Of a DNA stretch of 61,286 nucleotides, positions 28,814 to 40,005 are shown in pieces. The DNA lies in the NCBI GenBank assembly GCA_902765485.1, contig CACWZZ010000011.1, positions 1 through 61,286 on the forward strand. Direction: 5' to 3'. Under the pieces are notes generated by a model that ran no database searches, was not told where the DNA came from, and saw nothing but the letters and a program-made list of their open reading frames with translations. Both the position numbers and the translations under genes were made by a program. The number at the start of each line of letters is the position of its first letter. Position 1 is the first letter of the stretch. The stretch is from an uncultured Bacteroidales bacterium (lineage in GTDB: Bacteria > Bacteroidota > Bacteroidia > Bacteroidales > Paludibacteraceae).

Positions 28814-29212
28814 ATGAGAAAATTTTTACTAACCACGGCGCTGATGTTGCTAATCTTTATGCCGTGTGTACTACGCGCAGAAGAAACGGAAATCCAATTA
28901 GTGGAAGTTGTACCGATGAACTTTATTGTTCCCGGAGATGACCCGTTGGATGGTAATGATCACATGGGAGATACCCCTACTCGCCCAGGAAATTTCCGTG
29001 CAACGATCAATGGAAACTCGCTGACTATCCTCAAACAAGAAGAAACTATCCCTTTTGCGCAGGCGGTGGTTGTTAATGCTTCTACGGGAAGCGTAGTCGT
29101 TAACGAGCAGTTTACCAACTCTCTTTCCCGCCCGATTGCTAACGCAGGCGTGTATGTCCTCCGTATCGCAACCGCCAACGGCGAACTAGTAGGACAATTT
29201 AGAATAGAATAA
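28814..29212 (+). CDS. Small secreted protein with a DUF3244-like beta domain
   Basis: 132 residues: signal peptide (residues 1-22, LLTTALMLLIFMPCVLRA), a short linker rich in Asp and Pro, then about 70 residues of beta strands (FRATINGNSLTILKQ, AQAVVVNASTGSVVVNEQF, AGVYVLRIATANGELVGQFRIE). This resembles the small DUF3244-type or sorting-tail-like domains of Bacteroidales exported proteins. Function unknown. It is the first gene after the promoter at 28710-28740 and is followed 26 bp later by the large T9SS protein. Confidence 0.65.
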   Translation: MRKFLLTTALMLLIFMPCVLRAEETEIQLVEVVPMNFIVPGDDPLDGNDHMGDTPTRPGNFRATINGNSLTILKQEETIPFAQAVVVNASTGSVVVNEQFTNSLSRPIANAGVYVLRIATANGELVGQFRIE

Positions 29213-29238
29213 TGTTTAACATATAAAACAAAAATAGT

Positions 29239-31485
29239 ATGAAAAAGTATATTCTTTTAGTTTGCACATTTTGGGTAAGTGCGTTGATTCCCGTTATGGG
29301 GCAATCTTTTATCTTTAATGGCGACACCTTAAAAGGTTCTATTTGTATGATAGATGACAGTTTGCAGAATGATACCATGCTTATAGATGCGGATACTTGG
29401 GCAACGGCTAAGGATACCACACATGGATGGTACACGAGAGGGGATGTCAAAATCAAAACCACGCTGGATTCAATAGTGTATTTTACCTCTCTCGGCCCGG
29501 GAAAGGGCGGTGTATATTTCACTTATGGCACACGAGGATGTGGAGATTTCGTAAAAGGGAGCGAGATTTATAAGGATTTCAGCCCTGATAAATATGAGTT
29601 GGCTATTAAAGGTCCTGACTGTTTAAAAGAAGGAGATACTGCCGTTTATTCAGTAGATCCCATTTTTACCAAGAACTTAGGTGATTTTATAGGAATTGAC
29701 AATTATTATTGGAATATCAATCAGAAGCCTTATCCGTCCTTTGTGGACACCATTATATATGTTTCAGGTGACGGTAGTTCTATTACGTTCGTTGCAGGAG
29801 CTGTCTCTGGAAAAGATTCTATAGTAGTCAATTTCGGCCGCTGCAATCAAGATGAGGCGAAAAGAGTTGTCAAGCACTTGGATAAGAAGGCACCGGAAAT
29901 AATTATAGAAGACACATGTATAGCGGTAGGTAGTAGAATAGTCACTTTTAGAATTCCCAACCCACAAGAAGGGTTGTTTTATAAATGGCTGATTCCCTCA
30001 CCACAGTTTAGTGCTCAATCTTCTACTAGTGGAGATAACATAAGTGTCAAATTAAATGATAATAGCAATGGAGAAATCACGGTTCTTTCTTCTTACGACA
30101 AAAATAATTGGGATGGATGTTCTGTATCAACAACCTCTTTTATGGTTAACCGTATGATGGGAAGCGGAAATAGAGTCAAACCTGACAAAACTTGTTATTC
30201 TGTTGGTGATACTGCGCATATTAAGATTACAGGAATATTACCGGACAACACAAGATTTAAATGGCAATATCCAACTACTGGTTGGAATCTTGTTTTAGAA
30301 GACGGAGAAACTGAGGAAGATGTTATATTTAGGGATTCTATCAAGTTGGTTGCTACAGAAGAGATAACAGAGAGTGTGATTAATGCAACTATGTTGGGCT
30401 GTAGTGATGTAAGAACCCCGGATGTTAATGTATATGTCCGTCCGGCAGGAGTTGGGGATATTATTGGGAAAAGATGTGTCTCTCGTGGTGATTATTTTTG
30501 GTATCATGTGAATCCATTTGCCCATAAACCTTATGCACATCATTTTGAATGGACATTGCCGGAGGGAATGGAAGAACTTCGCTCAACATCAATGAAAGAT
30601 AGTATCTATGTTCATGTAAAAACCTCAGGAGAATTAGGTAATATGACCGTAATTCCACAAGGTATTAATGGATCATGTAACGGACCTGCATCTTCAGAGC
30701 AGATATTCTTGGAAGCCAAAAGTCCGTCCAGCATTAGTCAGTTTCATTGCGTTGCTTCAGGCAAAGAAGATACTGTTACTCTGTGGTTGGATGGTGTGCA
30801 AGAAAACCAAAACTATCATTGGATATTGCCCAACGGGGTTGTTCTTGATCCTAATTCTGGAGATGAAAATTTAACATTTATTAAAGTTCACACTTCTGGT
30901 ATAGCAGGTACATATCCTATACACGTATATGCAGAGAATAGTGTGTGTGGTAATTCTGATACAATAGACTATGATTTAGAAATAGCTGAAATTGCATACA
31001 GTATTAATTTCGTTCGTATGGGAAGCTATACATATTATTCGGTAAACGAATTGGATACATCTAAAATCGCATCATATAAATGGTACGAAAATGGAGTATT
31101 AAAGCAAGGTTTTACAACATATGATATTTTTTCAACCGCTACAGTCGTGACTTCTGAAGTATTATTGAAAAATGGTTGTACGCAAAGCATTACTATTAGA
31201 TCGGGTAATAATATAAAAAGAAGGGAACTTTCGAATAATCCCTCCCCAAAGCAAGAGAATGTATTTGCGACTCCGAACCCTGCCAATAATATTTTACACA
31301 TAGATTCAAATGCTGATAATTCATCTATTAGAATGATCGGTATCAATGGTGTGGTATTAGACAACTATATGTTACATTCTTCCTCACAAGATATAGACAT
31401 ATCAGATATACCATCAGGACAATATGTTATAATCTTATCTGACGGGAAAAATCAGATGATACAAAAATTGCTAATCCAACATTAA
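29239..31485 (+). CDS. Secreted multidomain protein with a type IX sorting domain
   Basis: 748 residues with a signal peptide (about residues 1-21, ending VMGQ). Four to five PKD/Ig-like domains of about 100 residues follow, each with a Cys-centred start (PDKTCYSVGDTAHIKITG, GKRCVSRGDYFWYHVNP, SQFHCVASGKEDTVTLWL). The C-terminal sorting domain (about residues 675-748) has FATPNPANNILHI, IRMIGINGVVL, ISDIPSGQYVIIL and QKLLIQH. The last is a clear T9SS type A signal, so the protein should be secreted or attached to the cell surface. It is AT-rich compared with the chromosome around it. Probably an adhesin; ligand unknown. Confidence 0.85.
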   Translation: MKKYILLVCTFWVSALIPVMGQSFIFNGDTLKGSICMIDDSLQNDTMLIDADTWATAKDTTHGWYTRGDVKIKTTLDSIVYFTSLGPGKGGVYFTYGTRGCGDFVKGSEIYKDFSPDKYELAIKGPDCLKEGDTAVYSVDPIFTKNLGDFIGIDNYYWNINQKPYPSFVDTIIYVSGDGSSITFVAGAVSGKDSIVVNFGRCNQDEAKRVVKHLDKKAPEIIIEDTCIAVGSRIVTFRIPNPQEGLFYKWLIPSPQFSAQSSTSGDNISVKLNDNSNGEITVLSSYDKNNWDGCSVSTTSFMVNRMMGSGNRVKPDKTCYSVGDTAHIKITGILPDNTRFKWQYPTTGWNLVLEDGETEEDVIFRDSIKLVATEEITESVINATMLGCSDVRTPDVNVYVRPAGVGDIIGKRCVSRGDYFWYHVNPFAHKPYAHHFEWTLPEGMEELRSTSMKDSIYVHVKTSGELGNMTVIPQGINGSCNGPASSEQIFLEAKSPSSISQFHCVASGKEDTVTLWLDGVQENQNYHWILPNGVVLDPNSGDENLTFIKVHTSGIAGTYPIHVYAENSVCGNSDTIDYDLEIAEIAYSINFVRMGSYTYYSVNELDTSKIASYKWYENGVLKQGFTTYDIFSTATVVTSEVLLKNGCTQSITIRSGNNIKRRELSNNPSPKQENVFATPNPANNILHIDSNADNSSIRMIGINGVVLDNYMLHSSSQDIDISDIPSGQYVIILSDGKNQMIQKLLIQH

Positions 31486-31486
31486 T

Positions 31487-32839
31487 ATGGGACGTTATAT
31501 ATATTGCATATTAGGCTCTTTATTGAGCCTAATATGCTTTGCTGAAAATTACAAGATACCTAACATAGAAGGTGATATACTAGTATATTCAATAAATAAT
31601 AATAAGGCCTATATAGAACCAAGCGATGAATATTCTTTTTTTATAAAATCGGACAGTCTTATCATTCCAGATAGTATTCAAGTTGCGTTACAGAACTACC
31701 CTGTTGTGGGAGCCCGTGCAGCAACATTTTCGACAATGCCATCCCATACAACAACACTTTCTCTACCTGCCACATGGACAGAATGGTCGAATTCGATAAT
31801 TTCTCCTTACATAAATAATCATTTTGAGAATTATTATGTAGATCCCGTCAATCCTTTGTTTAGAGCGAAAGATGGTATTCTATATACTAAAACTTGTAAC
31901 ACTTTAGTTTCTTATCCAACGGGAAGGAAAGATTCTATTGTCTTTCTGAGAGAAGGTATAGACACATTATATAAATCATGCCTTTTTGCTGCTAATATCG
32001 TATATTTAGAATTGCCTTTATCTTTAAAGCATATTGAAATGAATGCTATGCTGGACATGAATAGTTTACGCCAGATAATACTCAAAGATAGCATTAGAAG
32101 TTTGGATAATATGTGTATAGGAGGTGAAAATCTGAGTAACGTCATTATAGGGAAGGAACTTGTAGAAATTGATGCAAACAGCATACAATACTATAATCAG
32201 CCTATCAATCTCTATCTGTATGCACTTAATCCACCCCAAATAATAAATGGTTCTCCCAACGCAAATAATTATATAGTGCATGTGCCATCAAAAAGTATAT
32301 CTGCATATCAGCAAGCAGAAGGTTGGAAAGAATTCGGGACTATTCTTCCTATTGAGCCGCCGATAGTGACGGGTGTGGACACGGCATCTGTGAGCTGGGT
32401 GCAGAATTTCTCGGCAACAGGGTATGTATGGACGCTCTATACCGATGAAGCCAAGACACAGCGGTTCATGTCGCTTACGTTTGATGCCAACGGTCATCTG
32501 ACGCATATAGACATCAACAGCGGTCACATGCCCGAACGTATGCCTGCGCTGTACCAAGAGGACGGCGAGGAAGAGAAACAGTTTGCAGAGTACTACTCGT
32601 TCACGATCTCCGGTCTCTCGCCCGATACCAAGTACTATTATACCCGCCAGAGTCTGAAAGGGACAGAGGTCATCGACGAAGAGACAGGTTCATTTGAGAC
32701 GCAGAGCGACGGAGAAGAGGGATTAGAACAAAACAGCGGAAATTCTTCTAAACCGCAAAAAATTATTAAAGACGGGAACATGTATATTCATAACCAGAGA
32801 GAAATATATAATATCGATGGTAGTAAAGTTAACTATTAA
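31487..32839 (+). CDS. BspA-like surface protein with an FN3-like domain
   Basis: 450 residues: signal peptide (GSLLSLICFA), an N-terminal part with irregular BspA-type leucine-rich repeats (SIVFLREGIDTLYKSCLF, IVYLELPLSLKHIEMNAML, LRQIILKDSIRSLDNM, VIIGKELVEIDANSI), and an FN3-like domain of about 120 residues (VTGVDTASVSW, FTISGLSPDTKYYYTRQ). The end is short and conserved-looking (KIIKDGNMYIHNQREIYNIDGSKV), as found on many Bacteroidales secreted proteins. The FN3 part (about 32350-32720) is GC-rich, unlike the DNA on either side, so the gene is mosaic. It starts one base after the previous stop; rdrA begins 26 bp after its end. Confidence 0.75.
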   Translation: MGRYIYCILGSLLSLICFAENYKIPNIEGDILVYSINNNKAYIEPSDEYSFFIKSDSLIIPDSIQVALQNYPVVGARAATFSTMPSHTTTLSLPATWTEWSNSIISPYINNHFENYYVDPVNPLFRAKDGILYTKTCNTLVSYPTGRKDSIVFLREGIDTLYKSCLFAANIVYLELPLSLKHIEMNAMLDMNSLRQIILKDSIRSLDNMCIGGENLSNVIIGKELVEIDANSIQYYNQPINLYLYALNPPQIINGSPNANNYIVHVPSKSISAYQQAEGWKEFGTILPIEPPIVTGVDTASVSWVQNFSATGYVWTLYTDEAKTQRFMSLTFDANGHLTHIDINSGHMPERMPALYQEDGEEEKQFAEYYSFTISGLSPDTKYYYTRQSLKGTEVIDEETGSFETQSDGEEGLEQNSGNSSKPQKIIKDGNMYIHNQREIYNIDGSKVNY

Positions 32840-32865: not shown

Positions 32866-35601
32866 ATGGCTGAATCTCAAACTCCACAACAATCTCCCCA
32901 AGAGCATACTCCCAAGGAGATAGTTATTAAACTCAACGAAAGTACCTATGCACATTATTTTCATGTAGGAACCCGAATACATGAGCTAGAATATAATCGT
33001 GTATTAAAGATGATAGAAAGCCAATTGCAAAAAGCAATAGATGTTAAAAATTCAGATGAAGAGAAATCATATGGATTAATTCGTCATCATAATACAATTT
33101 CTATATTTGGCGGAAGGGGCTCAGGAAAGACGTCTTTTTTGCATACTATTTTTACTGATTGTGCTACCAAGTACGGATCCGATATAGAAATACTCAAAAT
33201 AATAGATCCAACATTAATAGAAACAAGAGGACATGTATTTCTTTGGGTCCTGTCTCTCATTGATGAAAAAGTCCAAAAAGTCATTCAAGAAGATAACATT
33301 GATATCCCTAGTAAATCATATCAGCAACGAAGGCATTGGAAAACGGCCCTACATAATTTGGCAAAAGGAATTCATGCTTTGGAAAATGTAGGAGTAGGCA
33401 TGGATAACTCTAATTGGCACGATGATGATTTTGTGGCAGAGCGAGGTCTACAAGAGGTAAAAGGAGCACTTTTTTTAGAAAAGAATTTTCGAGAACTAGT
33501 GTCAATAGGGTTAGAGATCCTAAACAAGAAAGCTTTTTTATTAGCATTTGATGATATTGATGTTGATATGGCAAAAGGATGGTCTGTCTTGGAGACGATA
33601 CGCAAATACTTGACATCAGATAAAATCATAGTACTTCTGAGCGGTAATCTGAGATTATATAGTCTAAATGTACGGAAACGTCAATGGCATCAATTACAAG
33701 AATTACAAGAGTGGGAAGGCGAAAAAGACTTCAAGATAGTCGTTAGTGAGATAGAGGGTCAATACCTAATGAAACTATTAAAGGCAGAAAACCGTGTTTA
33801 CCTTCACTCTATACAAGATAATATCAGGAGCGGAAAATACATTTATAAAGTAATGGGTAATGGGAGTACAGCAGACATGCAGTTTGAGGATCTGACATCG
33901 GTCTATAAGAAGGCATTAGCGGAATTAGGAATTATTAGTCGTACTCAATCCCATATATATAGTAATTATCTATTAAGTTTGTCTGTCCGTTCTCAAATGC
34001 ATTTTTTACGAGGAATAGATATTTCATCATGTGACTATAAAGTAAAAAATGAGGTCGACCCTTTTATGGCACGTATGTATGCTGCGAATATAGATATTGA
34101 CTACGCCATTAATAATCCTCAGATGATGAATATGGTTGCACTCAAGTACCTACTAACTCAAAACTTTGATTTGTATTTGTTAATCCCAACTGTGGAAGAT
34201 GAAGATGCGAACGGATGTGTTACCGGGTTGTCATTTTTATTTGCAAAAAAAGTCAAAAAGAATCCATTCCTTATATTTGATTATTTTATACGCATAGGCT
34301 ATACTAGAAATATGTTGAGTGCTTATGAAGAAACATATCCTAAACAAAAATTTTGCACATATTCAGGAATGTTTCAAGATATGTCGCTGAAGAATATCGT
34401 AGGTTTAAGTATCGCTTTTTCCACGACGTATAAGTTGAGCACAAAAATTCACATCCCATTATATGGATTATCACTAAAACAAAAAAATATAGCAAACAAC
34501 AGAATTGATGCAATGCTTCGTACCACAAATTTAACGAATGCACAAAAAATGATAGCACTAATTCCACTATGTTCTATAAAGCATGCATCATCTAACAATA
34601 GTAGCATGTTTTACTCAACCATTGTCTTGTTAGCCGCCATCGGACAAGTATTACGATGTGTATGTGATAACCAACTGAATGGAAACCAACCTGAAGTAAA
34701 CGATATTTTACGTGAATTGAAAGACATGCAGCAACATCGCTACTATGTCCAGCCACAAGAATCTGAAGAAGGAAGTAATGCAGAAGATAATATCGAAGAT
34801 TTTGATCTTGAAATGCAACAAAATAGTGATACTTCAACAACGGAACTAACATCATTATTTATCAAATGGGGAACAGGAAAACTTCAAACAGGAATTTCAT
34901 TGCCCTCATCAATTCCTCCCTACTTATTAGGAAAAATTATTACTCGTTATATGAACGCAGTACCTAAAATCAATGTAGAAAATTTAGGAGCACGTATGCA
35001 TTTCTCTCTTGTTTCTCTTCTAAATTCATGCCTGATTGAAGAAGTAAAGGAATATTATGAAAAGGAAGATGTTGTGGATGCTGAACACAAATCAATATCT
35101 ATAGAAGACTTGAATTTTTCTAACACAATAGAACATGACCAAATCTTCATAGATAACCTAACTTTTGTTAAAGAAAAAGAACTCGGGAAAGTATTAAAAT
35201 TAACGAAATGGTTGATTGTTTGTCCGTTGGTGGTTCCATTTATAAAAAAGGACTCTCTTTCCGATTATCATAAACTTTTAGAAATAGACCAAAAATCAGC
35301 AGATTATAAATTGCTTGTTGATGAAAAATTCTCATTGTACGAGCCATTGAGAAATGTGTTTGTAAAACAGCAAAAAGAGAAAAAGAAGAGAGAAGATGTA
35401 CAAAAAATCAGATTTACAGTAGATAATATTGCTCAAATTGAAGATTACTTTAGCAGAATAGGCAAAAAAGATGAGGTAACTGAGAAAATGAAATGGGGAA
35501 ATGTAGGTGAAATAAAAAAATATGTAGAGAAATTCATGGTCTTTAGTAGTCTTACGGCCGGAAATATTAGGGTTGTTAGACAGGCTTGGTTAGAAGAATA
35601 A
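32866..35601 (+). CDS. rdrA: RADAR ATPase RdrA (P-loop NTPase)
   Basis: 911 residues. Walker A is GGRGSGKT at residues 82-89, and a Walker B-like strand AFLLAFDDIDVD has its acidic residues at about 229-232. IIDPTLIETRGHVFLWVL, between them, is typical of this ATPase group. The helical C-terminal 600 residues are not recognisable as another enzyme. Length, motifs and above all the adjacent adenosine-deaminase gene fit RdrA of the RADAR antiphage system, known to form a ring that works with RdrB. Base use is strongly AT-rich. No promoter is visible in the 26-bp gap upstream. The family call rests on context and motifs, not on a profile search. Confidence 0.85.
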   Translation: MAESQTPQQSPQEHTPKEIVIKLNESTYAHYFHVGTRIHELEYNRVLKMIESQLQKAIDVKNSDEEKSYGLIRHHNTISIFGGRGSGKTSFLHTIFTDCATKYGSDIEILKIIDPTLIETRGHVFLWVLSLIDEKVQKVIQEDNIDIPSKSYQQRRHWKTALHNLAKGIHALENVGVGMDNSNWHDDDFVAERGLQEVKGALFLEKNFRELVSIGLEILNKKAFLLAFDDIDVDMAKGWSVLETIRKYLTSDKIIVLLSGNLRLYSLNVRKRQWHQLQELQEWEGEKDFKIVVSEIEGQYLMKLLKAENRVYLHSIQDNIRSGKYIYKVMGNGSTADMQFEDLTSVYKKALAELGIISRTQSHIYSNYLLSLSVRSQMHFLRGIDISSCDYKVKNEVDPFMARMYAANIDIDYAINNPQMMNMVALKYLLTQNFDLYLLIPTVEDEDANGCVTGLSFLFAKKVKKNPFLIFDYFIRIGYTRNMLSAYEETYPKQKFCTYSGMFQDMSLKNIVGLSIAFSTTYKLSTKIHIPLYGLSLKQKNIANNRIDAMLRTTNLTNAQKMIALIPLCSIKHASSNNSSMFYSTIVLLAAIGQVLRCVCDNQLNGNQPEVNDILRELKDMQQHRYYVQPQESEEGSNAEDNIEDFDLEMQQNSDTSTTELTSLFIKWGTGKLQTGISLPSSIPPYLLGKIITRYMNAVPKINVENLGARMHFSLVSLLNSCLIEEVKEYYEKEDVVDAEHKSISIEDLNFSNTIEHDQIFIDNLTFVKEKELGKVLKLTKWLIVCPLVVPFIKKDSLSDYHKLLEIDQKSADYKLLVDEKFSLYEPLRNVFVKQQKEKKKREDVQKIRFTVDNIAQIEDYFSRIGKKDEVTEKMKWGNVGEIKKYVEKFMVFSSLTAGNIRVVRQAWLEE

Positions 35602-35627
35602 TATAGGCAAGTAAATAGTTTAAGCGT

Positions 35628-37949
35628 GTGACTTCATATATTTCATATTTATTATCTGATACGTGGGCATTAAACCAGCTTCATCAGCAGTTAAAACCTG
35701 TCACTTTGCCAGATATACGTCGTCATCTGATGCTATTGGCACGCCAAAATAATAATCGCGTGCCAGACCATATATACAGGTTAGGGGAAGAAAAGACTTT
35801 TGAGGGAATAGATTCACTTGCTCAATTGTTTACAGAGGGCTTAAAACGTATAGCAAATGAGTTTTTAGAGATGAAAAAAGAAGTGGTATATGTAAAAGCT
35901 TGTAAGCAAAACGAGTGGCAGTTATTGATGACAAAGATACCTCCTCTTTTGTTAGTAGCAGTTAAAATAAATCAAGATCATATTTTAGGGAATGATTGTA
36001 TTAACTACTTGGAGACATATATAGTTCCAAATGTAAAATATACGGCAATCCCATCACCTGATATTCCGCAACTACAAAATCTTAGGGAACGTAAAAAAGG
36101 GTTATGTGATATGCATATTCACCTAAATGGCTCACTAGAGGCGGATGTTACTTGGCAAGATATGTTAGCACACACAGATGAAATAGATAGAAGTCTCAAG
36201 AAAGCCAGAGAAAAAAACAAGGTCAAAGAACAAGCGGATGATATATTGGGCTTTATGCCAGATTATAACAACTTTCCACGATTACTTAATAGCGCAAGGA
36301 AAATTCGCAATTATTTGTATTCTATTGTTGTAGAAGGTGATAATTCTTGTTCTTTGTTACGGATTCTACGTAATGTAATTCAAGACGAAATAACTTCAAA
36401 AATAGATTTTCGTGGACATCCTATGCGATTTCAGATAGGGGCTCGCGGCACAGATATACAGATGGAATGTTTATTGTATTGCAAAATACTTGATTTTCTA
36501 AATTCGCATCCAGACTGTGATTTAGTAGCCAATCTATTCCTATACTATTTGCTGATACTTGGAACTACTAATCGACTATTAGTACAACAGATACAATGCA
36601 CTGGTTTTGAAGAGTTCCAAAAATACACGCTAAATGAGCTTCGATCTTTTAGTGAAACACTATATAAACGTCGTTTCTTACAACTGGCAGGAAATGCATT
36701 AAATAATGTAAGCAGAATAGAAGGAAAATTCTCTCCCAAAGATTCTATAAAGGGGAATGAACAGATAGTGTCAAATATTATGCAAGGTATAGAGCAGTTA
36801 AGAAAACATCAGAAGCTACATCATAAGCCTCTATCTGAAGTACAATTAATTGCACATTTTATAAAAGAGCCGGAAAGTAAAAGAGATCCTCTTTTTAGGT
36901 ATAAAATTTTACGTCATAAAATTATGCACAAAGCAGAAGTTTTAGCGACGTGGAAGCGTTTGAAAAGTCCTAACTCAAATATTCTGACTGCAATAGACGC
37001 GGCCGCGAGTGAACTGGACACTCCGCCTGAAGTGTTTGCTCCGGCATATCGCTATCTTAGAAGTGAAGGAATTTCGCATTTTTCATACCATGCAGGCGAA
37101 GACTTCTTTCATATTCTTAGCGGTATGAGAGCCGTGTTCGAAGCAATAGATTTCTTGGATTTAAGACATGGCGATCGCATCGGGCATGCTACCGCCTGTG
37201 GGTTATCCGTACATTTATGGCATGAAAATATTGGTCCAAGATTATTGATACGCAAAGGGGAGTGGATGGATGACCTAATATTTGCTGCTTATCTGATTAA
37301 TACATACCGTGACCCTAGTCTTTTGCCTTTACTGCCAGTTTTGGGTGTCATGATTTCTAATTATTCACAGGATATATATGGGGAAAATTATGCTTTGTCA
37401 GAACATATTCGTGCTTGGTTGATTCGCAAAGAGGACCCTGAGTGTATGTATTATGAAAACAAGGATTTATTGACAGAATATATACTTTATTTGAAGTATC
37501 ATGATCAAGAGACAGCAAAGTGTTACAATGAAATAATTGAGATAGATTCGTGTGAGCCATTTGATGAAGAAGGGTTAGAGGTGTTTCAGAAATTAGTGCT
37601 AAGGTACATGCACGATAAGGAGATTGTGATAGAGATGTTACCGACCAGCAATGTGTTAATTAGTCATCACCATGATTTTTCTACGTATCATTTTTCCAAT
37701 TGGTTAAAATGGCAAAAAGAAGGCTGCCCCATGCCGGCAATCATCTTAGGCACAGATGATCCGGGGATTTTTGCAACGAACATTTATAATGAATATTGCA
37801 ATATTTTCTGTCATTTAGTATATCATGACGGAATGAGTTCGTTCGAAGCCCTTAAAATTTTAGAAGAGCTAGATTATAATTCCAGAATATACGCATTCAG
37901 AGATGAAAAGACAGATAATTATGAAGAAGAAATTTCATCGAATAAATAA
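35628..37949 (+). CDS. rdrB: RADAR adenosine deaminase RdrB
   Basis: 773 residues, twice the size of metabolic adenosine deaminases but with their catalytic set: metal ligands H163 and H165 in DMHIHLNGSLE, HAGE at 488-491 with the catalytic Glu, H520 in GDRIGHATA, and D710-D711 in LGTDDPGIF; SNVL precedes the last. In RADAR, RdrB deaminates adenosine in RNA or ATP/dATP nucleotides to inosine forms during phage infection. The GTG start at 35628 is chosen because no other start fits the N-terminal region. Its 3' end overlaps the next gene by 29 or 47 bp, so translation of kwaA is probably coupled to it. Confidence 0.88.
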   Translation: MTSYISYLLSDTWALNQLHQQLKPVTLPDIRRHLMLLARQNNNRVPDHIYRLGEEKTFEGIDSLAQLFTEGLKRIANEFLEMKKEVVYVKACKQNEWQLLMTKIPPLLLVAVKINQDHILGNDCINYLETYIVPNVKYTAIPSPDIPQLQNLRERKKGLCDMHIHLNGSLEADVTWQDMLAHTDEIDRSLKKAREKNKVKEQADDILGFMPDYNNFPRLLNSARKIRNYLYSIVVEGDNSCSLLRILRNVIQDEITSKIDFRGHPMRFQIGARGTDIQMECLLYCKILDFLNSHPDCDLVANLFLYYLLILGTTNRLLVQQIQCTGFEEFQKYTLNELRSFSETLYKRRFLQLAGNALNNVSRIEGKFSPKDSIKGNEQIVSNIMQGIEQLRKHQKLHHKPLSEVQLIAHFIKEPESKRDPLFRYKILRHKIMHKAEVLATWKRLKSPNSNILTAIDAAASELDTPPEVFAPAYRYLRSEGISHFSYHAGEDFFHILSGMRAVFEAIDFLDLRHGDRIGHATACGLSVHLWHENIGPRLLIRKGEWMDDLIFAAYLINTYRDPSLLPLLPVLGVMISNYSQDIYGENYALSEHIRAWLIRKEDPECMYYENKDLLTEYILYLKYHDQETAKCYNEIIEIDSCEPFDEEGLEVFQKLVLRYMHDKEIVIEMLPTSNVLISHHHDFSTYHFSNWLKWQKEGCPMPAIILGTDDPGIFATNIYNEYCNIFCHLVYHDGMSSFEALKILEELDYNSRIYAFRDEKTDNYEEEISSNK

Positions 37950-38535
37950 CTTAACCCCATGGGCGCAATCTGCTCTATTTGGTGTTTCGTATTCACCACT
38001 GTTTCTTATCTTGGTTGCAAAAATAATATATTCCAAGTCTGATTATTTAGTATGGGGTGGCTTTTCTCCGGCAGCAGTGATGACTTTTTTTCAGCAGTTC
38101 TGGTCCGTCGTTCTAATAATCGGAATACTTTTGTTTTCCACTATAGGTACAATATCTTTACTTAGAAATTTAAAGAAAACAGCATCGAATAATTCTCAAA
38201 AAATCACCATCAAAAATATGACGGATAAAAGTGTGGAAACAATTAACTATATTGCTACATACATTATTCCGTTTGTTTATGATGTACAAAATGACTTCGA
38301 TATTGCCATCATGCTGGTAATATTCATTGTTATTTATTGTATATATACCAACTCTTCACTTGTGGCAATAAACCCTATTTTGGCAATGCGGTACGGGCTA
38401 TATGAGATGGAGTTTGAAGAGAAAGGTAAAAGTCATTCCATTATAGTAATCGCTTGCAACAGAGATTTGATAGAGGGAGACGAGATAGATATATATGCTA
38501 TCGGTCGTAAGTTATATTTCAGTAAAACTCAATAA
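37903..38535 (+). CDS. kwaA: Kiwa membrane protein KwaA
   Basis: 210 residues from ATG 37903; ATG 37921 (MKKKFHR) is an equally good start. Four predicted membrane helices: SPLFLILVAKIIY, WSVVLIIGILLFSTIGTISLL, INYIATYIIPFVY and IAIMLVIFIVIYCIYTN. A cytosolic C-terminal domain of about 60 residues begins INPILAMRYGLYEMEF and ends IDIYAIGRKLYF. The four-helix topology and NP(I/L)LA..Y..YE element, and a DUF4868-like partner next door, fit KwaA of the Kiwa antiphage system, which senses infection at the membrane. RADAR loci often carry an accessory membrane protein (SLATT or Csx27 type); this one looks different. Confidence 0.75.
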   Translation: MKRQIIMKKKFHRINNLTPWAQSALFGVSYSPLFLILVAKIIYSKSDYLVWGGFSPAAVMTFFQQFWSVVLIIGILLFSTIGTISLLRNLKKTASNNSQKITIKNMTDKSVETINYIATYIIPFVYDVQNDFDIAIMLVIFIVIYCIYTNSSLVAINPILAMRYGLYEMEFEEKGKSHSIIVIACNRDLIEGDEIDIYAIGRKLYFSKTQ

Positions 38536-38547
38536 AACTCAATTATT

Positions 38548-39591
38548 ATGGAACATTCTCTCCAAACAATTTATGACAATGTATCGATTGCGGATACATT
38601 AAGTATGTATTTTATTATGCGTAAAGAAAAAGAAAATATAACAGGTAGACGAAGGGTGCTTGAAAAATATGATTTTTCTGTGCTACGAGTGGATATAAAT
38701 GAAGAAATCAGCCTGTTTTTAAAAGACTTAGCCCGAAAACAGATAGAACACGCCATTAAAAAAGAGCTAGAACTTACTCCTTATGAGGTAATTTCTGACG
38801 ATCAAGAGCAGGTGTTTACCTATACAGAACTAAACAAAATAGGATCTTTCGCAAAGATAATAAATGAGCAACTGCCGCATAAACTCACTATTCCAACAAT
38901 GCAGAATTTTGATGAAATTCTCAGGGTAGGAGATTTATTATGGGCATATTGTATAGAGTTGTCTTATGTAGAAAACAATGCCCGCAAATATATCTATACT
39001 TTCAGGAAATTGAATGCCGGTAACATTGTAGCGGATGAAAAAGAAAATCGTGCAGGAAAAATAAGAAATATCATGACTTTGTTTAATACGCGAAGCAATA
39101 AACTTGAGAAATTTAAAGGAGGAGCTATTAAACTGGATGCAACTATAGATTGCATTTTTGAATCCGGAATTTTCTATATTTTGCAAAAAAGCCAATTTGA
39201 GACACTGGTCGGAATGGCGGTGGATTTTCAAGAACAAGCAATTTCGGTGGTCGAGGAATTACAAAAACTGGATATGATAGATGGTCTGGAGCATATATCT
39301 GATGCTATCATTAAAAATACAGCAATTCATAAAAAATTAGTACGGTTAAAGAAACTGCAAAACTATGAAAAGTTGGATCCCGGCATGATAGCTAAAATGA
39401 AGCGAGCAGCAAAAACGGAGAAATATAAACTTAAGACAAATGAGGAAGGTAAGATTGTAATAGAAGATACCAAGGATGTAGATATGGTGATCAAGCTATT
39501 ATGCGATTATTATAAACAAGGAGTGGTAACAGGTAAGAACTATGGAACCTATGCCGGTAAATTTTTTGATAGTCCAGAGAACCTGTTGTAA
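38548..39591 (+). CDS. kwaB: Kiwa effector KwaB (DUF4868-like)
   Basis: 347 residues, soluble. The central region GGAIKLDATIDCIFESGIFYI then LQKSQFETLVGM matches the DUF4868 pattern as I know it. The C-terminal part has a helical stretch and a final LLCDYYKQGVVTGKNYGTY segment, also typical of the family. KwaB is the DNA-binding partner of KwaA in Kiwa defence. It starts 12 bp after the kwaA stop and ends the operon. AT-rich like its neighbours. The call depends on the KwaA context and remembered family pattern; a profile search would settle it. Confidence 0.77.
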   Translation: MEHSLQTIYDNVSIADTLSMYFIMRKEKENITGRRRVLEKYDFSVLRVDINEEISLFLKDLARKQIEHAIKKELELTPYEVISDDQEQVFTYTELNKIGSFAKIINEQLPHKLTIPTMQNFDEILRVGDLLWAYCIELSYVENNARKYIYTFRKLNAGNIVADEKENRAGKIRNIMTLFNTRSNKLEKFKGGAIKLDATIDCIFESGIFYILQKSQFETLVGMAVDFQEQAISVVEELQKLDMIDGLEHISDAIIKNTAIHKKLVRLKKLQNYEKLDPGMIAKMKRAAKTEKYKLKTNEEGKIVIEDTKDVDMVIKLLCDYYKQGVVTGKNYGTYAGKFFDSPENLL

Positions 39592-40005
39592 GACCGATAC
39601 TCTCCAAGATTCTCCTATTTTTTGGGTATTGTCGTCCTAAGGTGATCGCGTGTTGGTCGGGAGATGATCCCGTGATGGTCGCGTTGGCAACCCGATAGAC
39701 AGTCAGTGACTAAACCTGTGACTAAACCTGAAAAAGGTTGACTCGAAAACTGAGTTAGGATCTTAAAAATCGTAAACTTTTGACTCGATACCTGAAAAGG
39801 TTGACCGGAGTGCAGAAAAAGTTTATTCATCTGAAAGACGCTGCAAAGTTACTGATTTTTATTGACATATACAAATATTTTCACACAAAAATGTTCCCTG
39901 ATCGCAAAATTTATTTCTACAAAATGTTTCCTGAGCGCAAAATCTTTTTTCGCAAAATGTACTTTGAGCGCAAAATTTATTTGCAAATAAAAAACCGCTG
40001 TTTGA
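39592..40005. other. 414-bp non-coding region at the right edge of the defence island
   Basis: No gene is supported. Contents in order: a GC-richer patch with repeated GATGGTCGCG/GTGATCGCG motifs (39640-39690); a 12-bp tandem duplication GTGACTAAACCT (39706-39729); two small hairpins AACCT-AGGTT and ACCT-AGGT within similar GAAAA(A)GGTTGAC sequence (39726-39805); and three 33-bp tandem repeats (39888-39986). kwaB and rfbB converge here. Confidence 0.6.
39888..39986 (+). repeat. Three 33-bp tandem repeats
   Basis: Copies begin at 39888, 39921 and 39954 with the pattern AAAATGTT(T/C)CCTGA..GCAAAAT. The period is exact and divisible by three, so an 11-residue unit (KMFPERKIFFR) can be read, but no gene context supports translation. 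Confidence 0.85.

What the first reader, a model, noticed from the sequence alone, without database searches (positions are those of the whole stretch)
32866..39591. A composite RADAR-Kiwa antiphage operon
Four tightly packed same-strand genes: a 911-residue P-loop ATPase (GGRGSGKT, AFLLAFDDIDVD); a 773-residue adenosine-deaminase-superfamily protein with every catalytic motif (HIHLNGS, HAGE, RIGH, GTDDPGIF); a four-helix membrane protein; and a DUF4868-like protein. The first two are the RADAR pair RdrA-RdrB; the last two fit the Kiwa pair KwaA-KwaB. Each pair is a known antiphage system, but I know of no description of the two as one operon. Kiwa reacts to infection at the membrane and RADAR deaminates adenosine in RNA or nucleotides, so membrane sensing could be tied to nucleotide or RNA deamination, or the unit could simply be stacked protection.
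Basis: partly seen in the sequence, partly recalled or inferred. Interest (0 to 1): 0.93.

Follow-up and report, generated by a model that had tools for sequence, protein, structure and literature searches.

The report
RADAR operon with appended Kiwa cassette
A bacterium carries two known virus-defence systems, RADAR and Kiwa, joined end to end in one gene cluster; the pair looks like one case of a wider habit in which the two Kiwa genes are stuck onto the end of other, often DNA-cutting, defence operons.

Summary
Window 32866-39591 carries four same-strand genes: RdrA, RdrB, KwaA and KwaB. Profiles of relatives match the solved RdrA, RdrB, KwaA and KwaB chains. KwaA starts 29 nt inside rdrB, so one transcript is likely, though untested.

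A specific RADAR-Kiwa partnership is not supported. The best 80 RdrB loci show no KwaA or KwaB; 65 of them reach at least 2 kb beyond rdrB. The closest KwaB relative found (43% identical) stands alone.

In the window's KwaB clade, KwaAB overlaps or lies within 16 nt of an upstream defence gene in 6 of 13 loci, and 155-224 nt behind one in 4 more; no same-strand ORF of 100 aa or more follows within 50 nt. Of these ten partners, RADAR included, five are plain restriction-modification. In two genomes of the window's family the KwaAB DNA is 84.8% identical, bounded close to its own ORFs, yet follows a type II RM in one and an AAA/DUF2357-PDDEXK pair in the other.

So KwaAB behaves as a portable 3' add-on, here on a divergent RADAR. 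Stacked, independent protection is likeliest; a general coupling role stays open.

The parts
32866..35601 (+). rdrA: RADAR AAA ATPase, 911 aa
   Evidence: PADLOC RdrA 9e-28, NCBIfam RdrA 121 bits against a cut-off of 600; profile A4 (window plus six relatives) matches solved RdrA 8fnt at 277 bits over positions 4-777 of 895; alone 103 bits, residues 60-382; Walker A at residue 82
35628..37949 (+). rdrB: RADAR adenosine-deaminase-fold enzyme, 773 aa, GTG start
   Evidence: PADLOC RdrB 4.5e-22, NCBIfam RdrB 148 bits against a cut-off of 800; alone 231 bits to solved RdrB 8fnw; profile A5 372 bits over positions 8-761 of 762; deaminase motifs present, residues H163, H165, H488, E491, H520, D710 and D711 invariant in A1
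37921..37949 (+). 29-nt overlap: last 8 codons plus stop of rdrB lie inside the start of kwaA (junction of the two modules)
   Evidence: codons of both frames printed
37921..38535 (+). kwaA: Kiwa membrane protein, 204 aa (mechanical ORF start 37903)
   Evidence: PADLOC KwaA PDLC00212 1.2e-56; alone 32 bits to solved KwaA 9mrg, profile A3 48.5 bits
38548..39591 (+). kwaB: Kiwa DUF4868 DNA-binding effector, 347 aa
   Evidence: PADLOC KwaB PDLC00223 5.6e-100, Pfam KwaB PF16162 4.8e-15; profile A2 38 bits to solved KwaB 9o0i, C-terminal half only; the sequence alone does not hit solved KwaB (its one hit, a CD-NTase at E 0.017, I take as chance)

Best explanation
The locus is a divergent RADAR system (rdrA-rdrB) to whose 3' end a portable two-gene Kiwa cassette (kwaA-kwaB) has been joined, probably giving one transcript. 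Shown: the four families, the tight order, the rdrB/kwaA overlap, the variety of partners that the same Kiwa clade follows elsewhere, and one cassette with two different partners in the same bacterial family. Inferred: RdrA opens RdrB to ATP/dATP on infection and (d)ITP builds up; KwaA in the inner membrane senses phage entry and brings KwaB onto the incoming DNA; both answer infection on their own, and co-expression simply widens protection.
For: Families. Junction. No KwaA/KwaB in any of the best 80 RdrB loci (tblastn, phmmer plus profile); 78 of 80 show the rdrB stop and 65 show at least 2 kb beyond it. In the order sample RdrB was in 6 of 393 genomes and KwaB in 3 of 393, only the window's genome in both; in 118 family genomes 2 others had RdrB and 2 others KwaAB, none both. 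Kiwa partners within 16 nt or overlapping: RADAR (window), SLFN_AlbA_2 protein (L105), type I MTase+HsdS (L115), Eco29kI-type RM (L116), helicase + type IIG (L117), AAA + DUF2357/PDDEXK_7 pair (L150); 155-224 nt behind NgoFVII-type RM (L149), Hhe (L106), type I RM (L107), DUF2726 (L118). One cassette, two partners (L149, L150). Mechanism of each half: passages of PMC9994260 and PMC12904381.
Against: No transcript, protein or phage data. All four proteins score below their NCBIfam equivalog cut-offs. Two E. coli prophage loci (L161, L163) and L104 of the same KwaB clade stand without a defence partner, so appending is common but not universal, and the sample is small (13 loci). In the other Kiwa subtypes 9 of 13 loci are not tight upstream, and in 3 of 13 an ORF of 100 aa or more does follow kwaB within 50 nt, so the 3'-terminal place is not a rule of Kiwa at large. 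I did not measure how often other defence genes sit this tightly behind restriction operons, so the excess for Kiwa is unquantified. The mobile step in the window's own history is not seen: I found no KwaB above 43% identity.
Confidence: 0.66

Rival explanations
1. KwaAB is a general membrane sensor or DNA-holding platform that makes whichever defence it is appended to work better; with restriction enzymes it holds incoming DNA in reach of the nuclease, and with RADAR it would place or trigger the deaminase near the entry site.
For: Partners differ while the add-on stays the same and sits 3'; 5 of the 9 other partners are plain RM and two more (Hhe, the AAA/DUF2357-PDDEXK pair) carry nuclease-type domains; one cassette has two different partners. 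Recalled, not read here: the Kiwa paper's abstract reports that RecBCD restores Kiwa protection when phage Gam blocks KwaB.
Against: Kiwa is described as a two-component system (PMC12904381 passage), and same-clade KwaAB occurs alone in E. coli prophages. Co-transcription alone would give the same pattern.
Confidence: 0.2
2. A specific RADAR-Kiwa machine: KwaA senses entry and switches on RdrA-RdrB.
For: Tight overlap and fixed order in the window. Recalled: some RADAR operons carry membrane accessory proteins (RdrC/RdrD, SLATT or Csx27 type); L022 here has a 206-aa protein 51 nt behind rdrB with a weak SLATT-type hit (E 0.0014).
Against: 0 of 80 best RdrB loci; nearest KwaB relative alone; KwaB keeps its own DUF4868 domain, which a mere RADAR accessory would not need.
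Confidence: 0.06
3. The junction is an assembly error that joins two separate defence loci of a draft genome.
For: The genome is in 41 contigs and 82.8% complete; none of the 117 other family genomes searched shows the junction.
Against: The junction is an ORF overlap with a proper stop and start; G+C is alike on both sides (0.33-0.39 from 33 to 40 kb) and differs from the outer flanks.
Confidence: 0.04
4. The unit is a decaying remnant in a foreign low-G+C island and no longer protects.
For: The island at 28-40 kb is low in G+C; same-genus genome G245 has no RdrB, KwaA or KwaB match and lacks the unit beside rfbB.
Against: All four frames are open and full-length, with catalytic and Walker motifs intact.
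Confidence: 0.04

Closest known systems
RADAR (RdrA-RdrB), structures 8fnt/8fnv/8fnw/8hr7
   Same: Gene pair and order, ATPase and deaminase motifs, near full-length profile match to the solved proteins
   Different: Divergent: 121 and 148 bits against NCBIfam cut-offs of 600 and 800; carries Kiwa genes at its 3' end, not seen in the best 80 relatives
Kiwa (KwaA-KwaB), structures 9mrg/9mrx/9o0i
   Same: Gene pair and order; KwaA matches solved KwaA; KwaB matches DUF4868/KwaB models
   Different: Best models are PADLOC PDLC00212/PDLC00223; only the C-terminal half of KwaB aligns with solved KwaB; joined to another defence operon instead of free-standing
Kiwa behind other defence operons (this clade: L105, L106, L107, L115, L116, L117, L118, L149, L150; other subtypes: L127, L131, L165)
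   Same: KwaAB behind another defence or defence-like gene, same strand
   Different: Many of those partners cut or modify DNA; the window's partner is a nucleotide-deaminase system
RADAR with accessory membrane genes (RdrC/RdrD, recalled)
   Same: A membrane protein gene directly behind rdrB
   Different: KwaA is a Kiwa protein with its own effector KwaB

Membership tests
RADAR | RdrA ATPase followed by RdrB deaminase, same strand | tested here: met
   (26 nt apart)
RADAR | Whole-length similarity to solved RdrA and RdrB | tested here: met
   by profile: A4 to 8fnt 277 bits, positions 4-777 of 895; A5 to 8fnw 372 bits, positions 8-761 of 762. RdrA alone matches only residues 60-382
RADAR | NCBIfam equivalog cut-offs NF041743 / NF041744 | tested here: not met
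   121 of 600 and 148 of 800 bits; so a divergent member, not an equivalog by that rule
RADAR | Walker A/B and zinc-deaminase residues | tested here: met
RADAR | ATP to ITP conversion, giant RdrA-RdrB assembly | not testable with these tools
   needs protein work
Kiwa | KwaA membrane protein next to KwaB with DUF4868/KwaB domain | tested here: met
Kiwa | NCBIfam equivalog cut-offs NF041622 / NF041623 | tested here: not met
   70.8 of 100 and 42 of 200 bits
Kiwa | Pfam KwaB PF16162 gathering score | tested here: met
   56.5 against 26.3 bits
Kiwa | Four transmembrane helices in KwaA | tested here: inconclusive
   hydropathy shows three clear regions
Kiwa | Membrane supercomplex that binds phage DNA | not testable with these tools
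   needs protein work
Joint RADAR-Kiwa system | Arrangement conserved in other genomes | tested here: not met
   0 of 80 RdrB loci; no other genome with both proteins in the samples+30 (393) and 60 (118)

The most novel reading that the evidence does not exclude
KwaAB of this clade is a plug-in for other defence operons: a membrane sensor and DNA-binding pair that moves as an ORF-bounded cassette onto the 3' ends of restriction, helicase-nuclease and, here, nucleotide-deaminase operons, and makes each of them act where phage DNA enters. Among the loci seen, RADAR would be the one partner known to act on nucleotides instead of DNA.
Probability: 0.2. Interest if true: 0.8.

Novelty: new variant of a known kind. 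Interest (0 to 1): 0.5.

Why it matters
Defence genes cluster in islands, but the reasons are not clear (PMC10121019, passages). A cassette seen with different partners in genomes of one family, with homology limits close to its own ORFs, offers a clean natural experiment: the same KwaAB behind RADAR, behind type I, II or IIG restriction, or alone. Whether it adds to or multiplies its partner's protection can be tested directly, and RADAR-Kiwa is the case that tells DNA-holding from general sensing.

Tried and rejected
Rejected: a conserved RADAR-Kiwa system (0 of 80 loci; the five RdrB loci from viral contigs were in the search and also gave no KwaA/KwaB). Rejected as evidence: the sigma-70 scan, since hits equal the shuffled expectation, 46 against 48, so no promoter is claimed. 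The RdrB tail length (16 residues past F757; median 5, but 10 of 69 relatives have 16 or more) does not by itself mark a junction.

Led nowhere: KwaB in viral contigs and phages, no relative found; a clean empty site in same-genus genome G245 (rfbB and its neighbour kept, AraC-type gene about 12 kb away and inverted); more plasmid Kiwa of the window's clade (the same two records). Two E. coli searches were the same query, best and spread rows.

Searches searched KwaB only. One search measured 26 Kiwa loci; of the 29 rows in the tree I dropped L114 (contig cut), L155 and L160 (KwaA start not settled). Opened but not in the tree: L154, L162, L164 (same kinds of site as L153, L161, L163). In one search the coordinates were entered by hand; the KwaA starts for L129 and L165 do not fall on a start codon (L165 is off by a few bases), and L106 and L156 use GTG and TTG. 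Of 159 E. coli genomes with a match (of 5426) I opened four loci, at two prophage sites.
Full report
WHAT IS THERE. Four same-strand genes fill 32866-39591: rdrA (911 aa), rdrB (773 aa, GTG start), kwaA (204 aa from 37921) and kwaB (347 aa). PADLOC names them RdrA (9e-28), RdrB (4.5e-22), KwaA (1.2e-56) and KwaB (5.6e-100); Pfam adds A_deaminase for RdrB and KwaB PF16162 for KwaB. NCBIfam finds the same four families, each below its equivalog cut-off. The expected motifs are in place. Gaps are 26 nt, a 29-nt overlap, and 12 nt. In the overlap the last eight RdrB codons and its stop are read out of frame from the start of kwaA.

MEMBERSHIP. RdrA and RdrB are divergent but whole. A profile of the window's RdrA and six relatives matches solved RdrA 8fnt at 277 bits over positions 4-777 of 895; the equivalent seven-row RdrB profile matches 8fnw at 372 bits over nearly its whole length. 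RdrA alone matches only residues 60-382 (103 bits); RdrB alone gives 231 bits. An earlier RdrB profile gave 1037 bits, but it contained a Pantoea sequence that looks close to the solved one, so I do not lean on it. KwaA matches solved KwaA (32 bits alone; 48.5 by profile). KwaB matches solved KwaB only by profile and only in the C-terminal half; alone it does not.

SURROUNDINGS. G+C falls to 0.33-0.41 from 28 to 40 kb against 0.46-0.58 outside, within 24-46 kb, so the unit lies in a foreign-looking stretch that also holds a protein with PKD and Por-secretion domains and a BspA-type LRR protein; the latter ends 26 nt before rdrA. In G245, a same-genus genome, rfbB and its neighbour are kept but the unit is absent there, and the AraC-type gene lies about 12 kb off and inverted. 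No promoter claim is possible. The next gene beyond kwaB, rfbB, faces it and ends about 0.4 kb away.

IS RADAR-KIWA CONSERVED? Not in what I searched. None shows KwaA or KwaB by tblastn at E 1e-3 or by phmmer and a second-round profile. 78 of 80 show the rdrB stop, and 65 of 80 at least 2 kb beyond it. Of 393 genomes of the order, 6 have RdrB and 3 have KwaB, the window's genome being the only one in both lists. Of 118 genomes of the family, two others have RdrB and two others KwaAB. On plasmids 7 records matched RdrB and 2 matched KwaB, none both. KwaB hits were 7 of 395 in the phylum sample, 7 of 395 in the class sample by profile, 1 of 98 (the centre genome itself) and 4 of 207 (all seen before).

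WHERE DOES THIS KIWA CLADE SIT? A tree of 29 KwaB proteins puts the window in a clade of 14 rows (97/98), with L104 as its nearest row (98/91, 43% identity). L104 has no same-strand upstream ORF of 100 aa or more ending within 400 nt. In that clade 13 loci show the upstream side. Six are tight: window (RdrB, -29 nt), L105 (SLFN_AlbA_2 with HATPase_c_4, -11), L117 (type IIG enzyme behind a PLD-helicase, -8), L115 (type I HsdS, -1), L116 (Eco29kI endonuclease, 12) and L150 (DUF2357-PDDEXK_7 behind an AAA_5 ATPase, 16; I recall such pairs as McrBC-like). Four are looser: L149 (NgoFVII-type endonuclease, 155), L106 (Hhe, 186), L107 (type I MTase, 216) and L118 (DUF2726, 224). Two E. coli prophage loci (208 nt behind queH, 387 nt behind icd) and L104 have no defence partner. 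So five of the nine partners other than RADAR are plain restriction-modification (L107, L115, L116, L117, L149). No same-strand ORF of at least 100 aa begins within 50 nt behind kwaB in any of the 13; L150 has an 85-codon one at 49 nt. Six tight upstream against none downstream is p about 0.03 by a sign test (my arithmetic).

OTHER KIWA SUBTYPES. Here 4 of 13 loci are tight upstream: L127 (HsdS, 2 nt), L165 (type IIG-like, a few nt), L131 (Ymh, 14) and L159 (unknown, -16); nine are not, among them 5 of the 6 plasmid loci. In three of the 13 (L127, L159, L165) an ORF of 100 aa or more also follows kwaB within 50 nt, so the 3'-terminal place holds for the window's clade and not for Kiwa at large.

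ONE CASSETTE, TWO PARTNERS. L149 and L150 belong to the window's own family. Their kwaAB are 84.8% identical over one 1630-nt BLAST match, the only match at E 1e-3 between the two stretches of 19.0 and 14.0 kb. It begins 12 nt before the kwaA start and stops 16 and 22 nt before the end of the kwaB stop codon. Upstream, one has a type II RM and the other the AAA/DUF2357 pair. So kwaAB was moved or added separately, or its upstream partner was replaced. This is the strongest single result for the add-on reading. The window's own event is inferred by analogy.

HOW IT LIKELY WORKS. RADAR turns ATP/dATP into ITP/dITP on infection, and its authors found no strong RNA editing (PMC9994260, passages). 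Kiwa's KwaA senses infection at the membrane, and KwaB binds injected DNA without cutting it (PMC12904381, passages; the original Kiwa paper is not held). Neither needs the other in those accounts. I therefore favour independent, co-expressed layers (0.66 for the whole statement). A general plug-in role of KwaAB stays open (0.2), because many of its partners are DNA-restriction systems; RADAR would be the odd one.

KNOWN OR NEW. Both systems are known; neither the combination nor the recurrent add-on placement showed in the listings of my nine literature searches. These cover open-licence papers only, and I read passages of three papers, so this is not proof that it is unpublished. Hence 'new variant of a known kind', interest 0.5.

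Noticed in passing
L030:6346-6696, L031:12351-12710, L017:12301-12657, L035:4176-4529: A small protein family (117-120 aa) directly or almost directly behind rdrB in four Bacteroidota RADAR loci, similar to each other (phmmer 1.5e-8 to 1.7e-22); no PADLOC hit for the two tested and no Pfam hit for the one tested. It may be a third RADAR gene of this group; KwaA takes that slot in the window.
   Followed up: partly
L008:11411-13710 and L157:2308-4591: An adenylosuccinate-synthetase-annotated gene plus a 230-aa partner lies behind RADAR on one Rhizobium plasmid and beside Kiwa on another (50% and 56% identity): perhaps an undescribed purine-linked defence pair.
   Followed up: partly
L147 and L148 (genome G1230): One genome of the window's family holds three RdrB-type genes; two RADAR operons lie within one 17.6-kb stretch, with genes between them that look by eye like an MBL-fold protein, a phosphoesterase and a HATPase.
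   Followed up: no
L025:12462-17676: Behind another RADAR an overlapping gene run ends in a large protein with a weak JetC (Wadjet) hit (2e-5): RADAR may be stacked with other systems too.
   Followed up: partly
L019:12406-13311: A PDC-S18 candidate defence protein (DUF5655, 3.1e-142) starts 26 nt behind rdrB.
   Followed up: partly
L011 / L020: An rdrB lacking its N-terminal part, with no RdrA match on the contig, beside genes that look by eye like conjugative transfer genes.
   Followed up: no
window 39888-39986: Three 33-nt tandem copies between kwaB and rfbB, function unknown.
   Followed up: no
window 28814-32839: Genes for a PKD/Por-secretion-domain protein and a BspA-type LRR protein packed tightly ahead of rdrA in the same low-G+C stretch.
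   Followed up: no
L105:9364-9867: kwaA in this locus is short (167 aa), ending before the C-terminal part that the other eight aligned sequences have.
   Followed up: no
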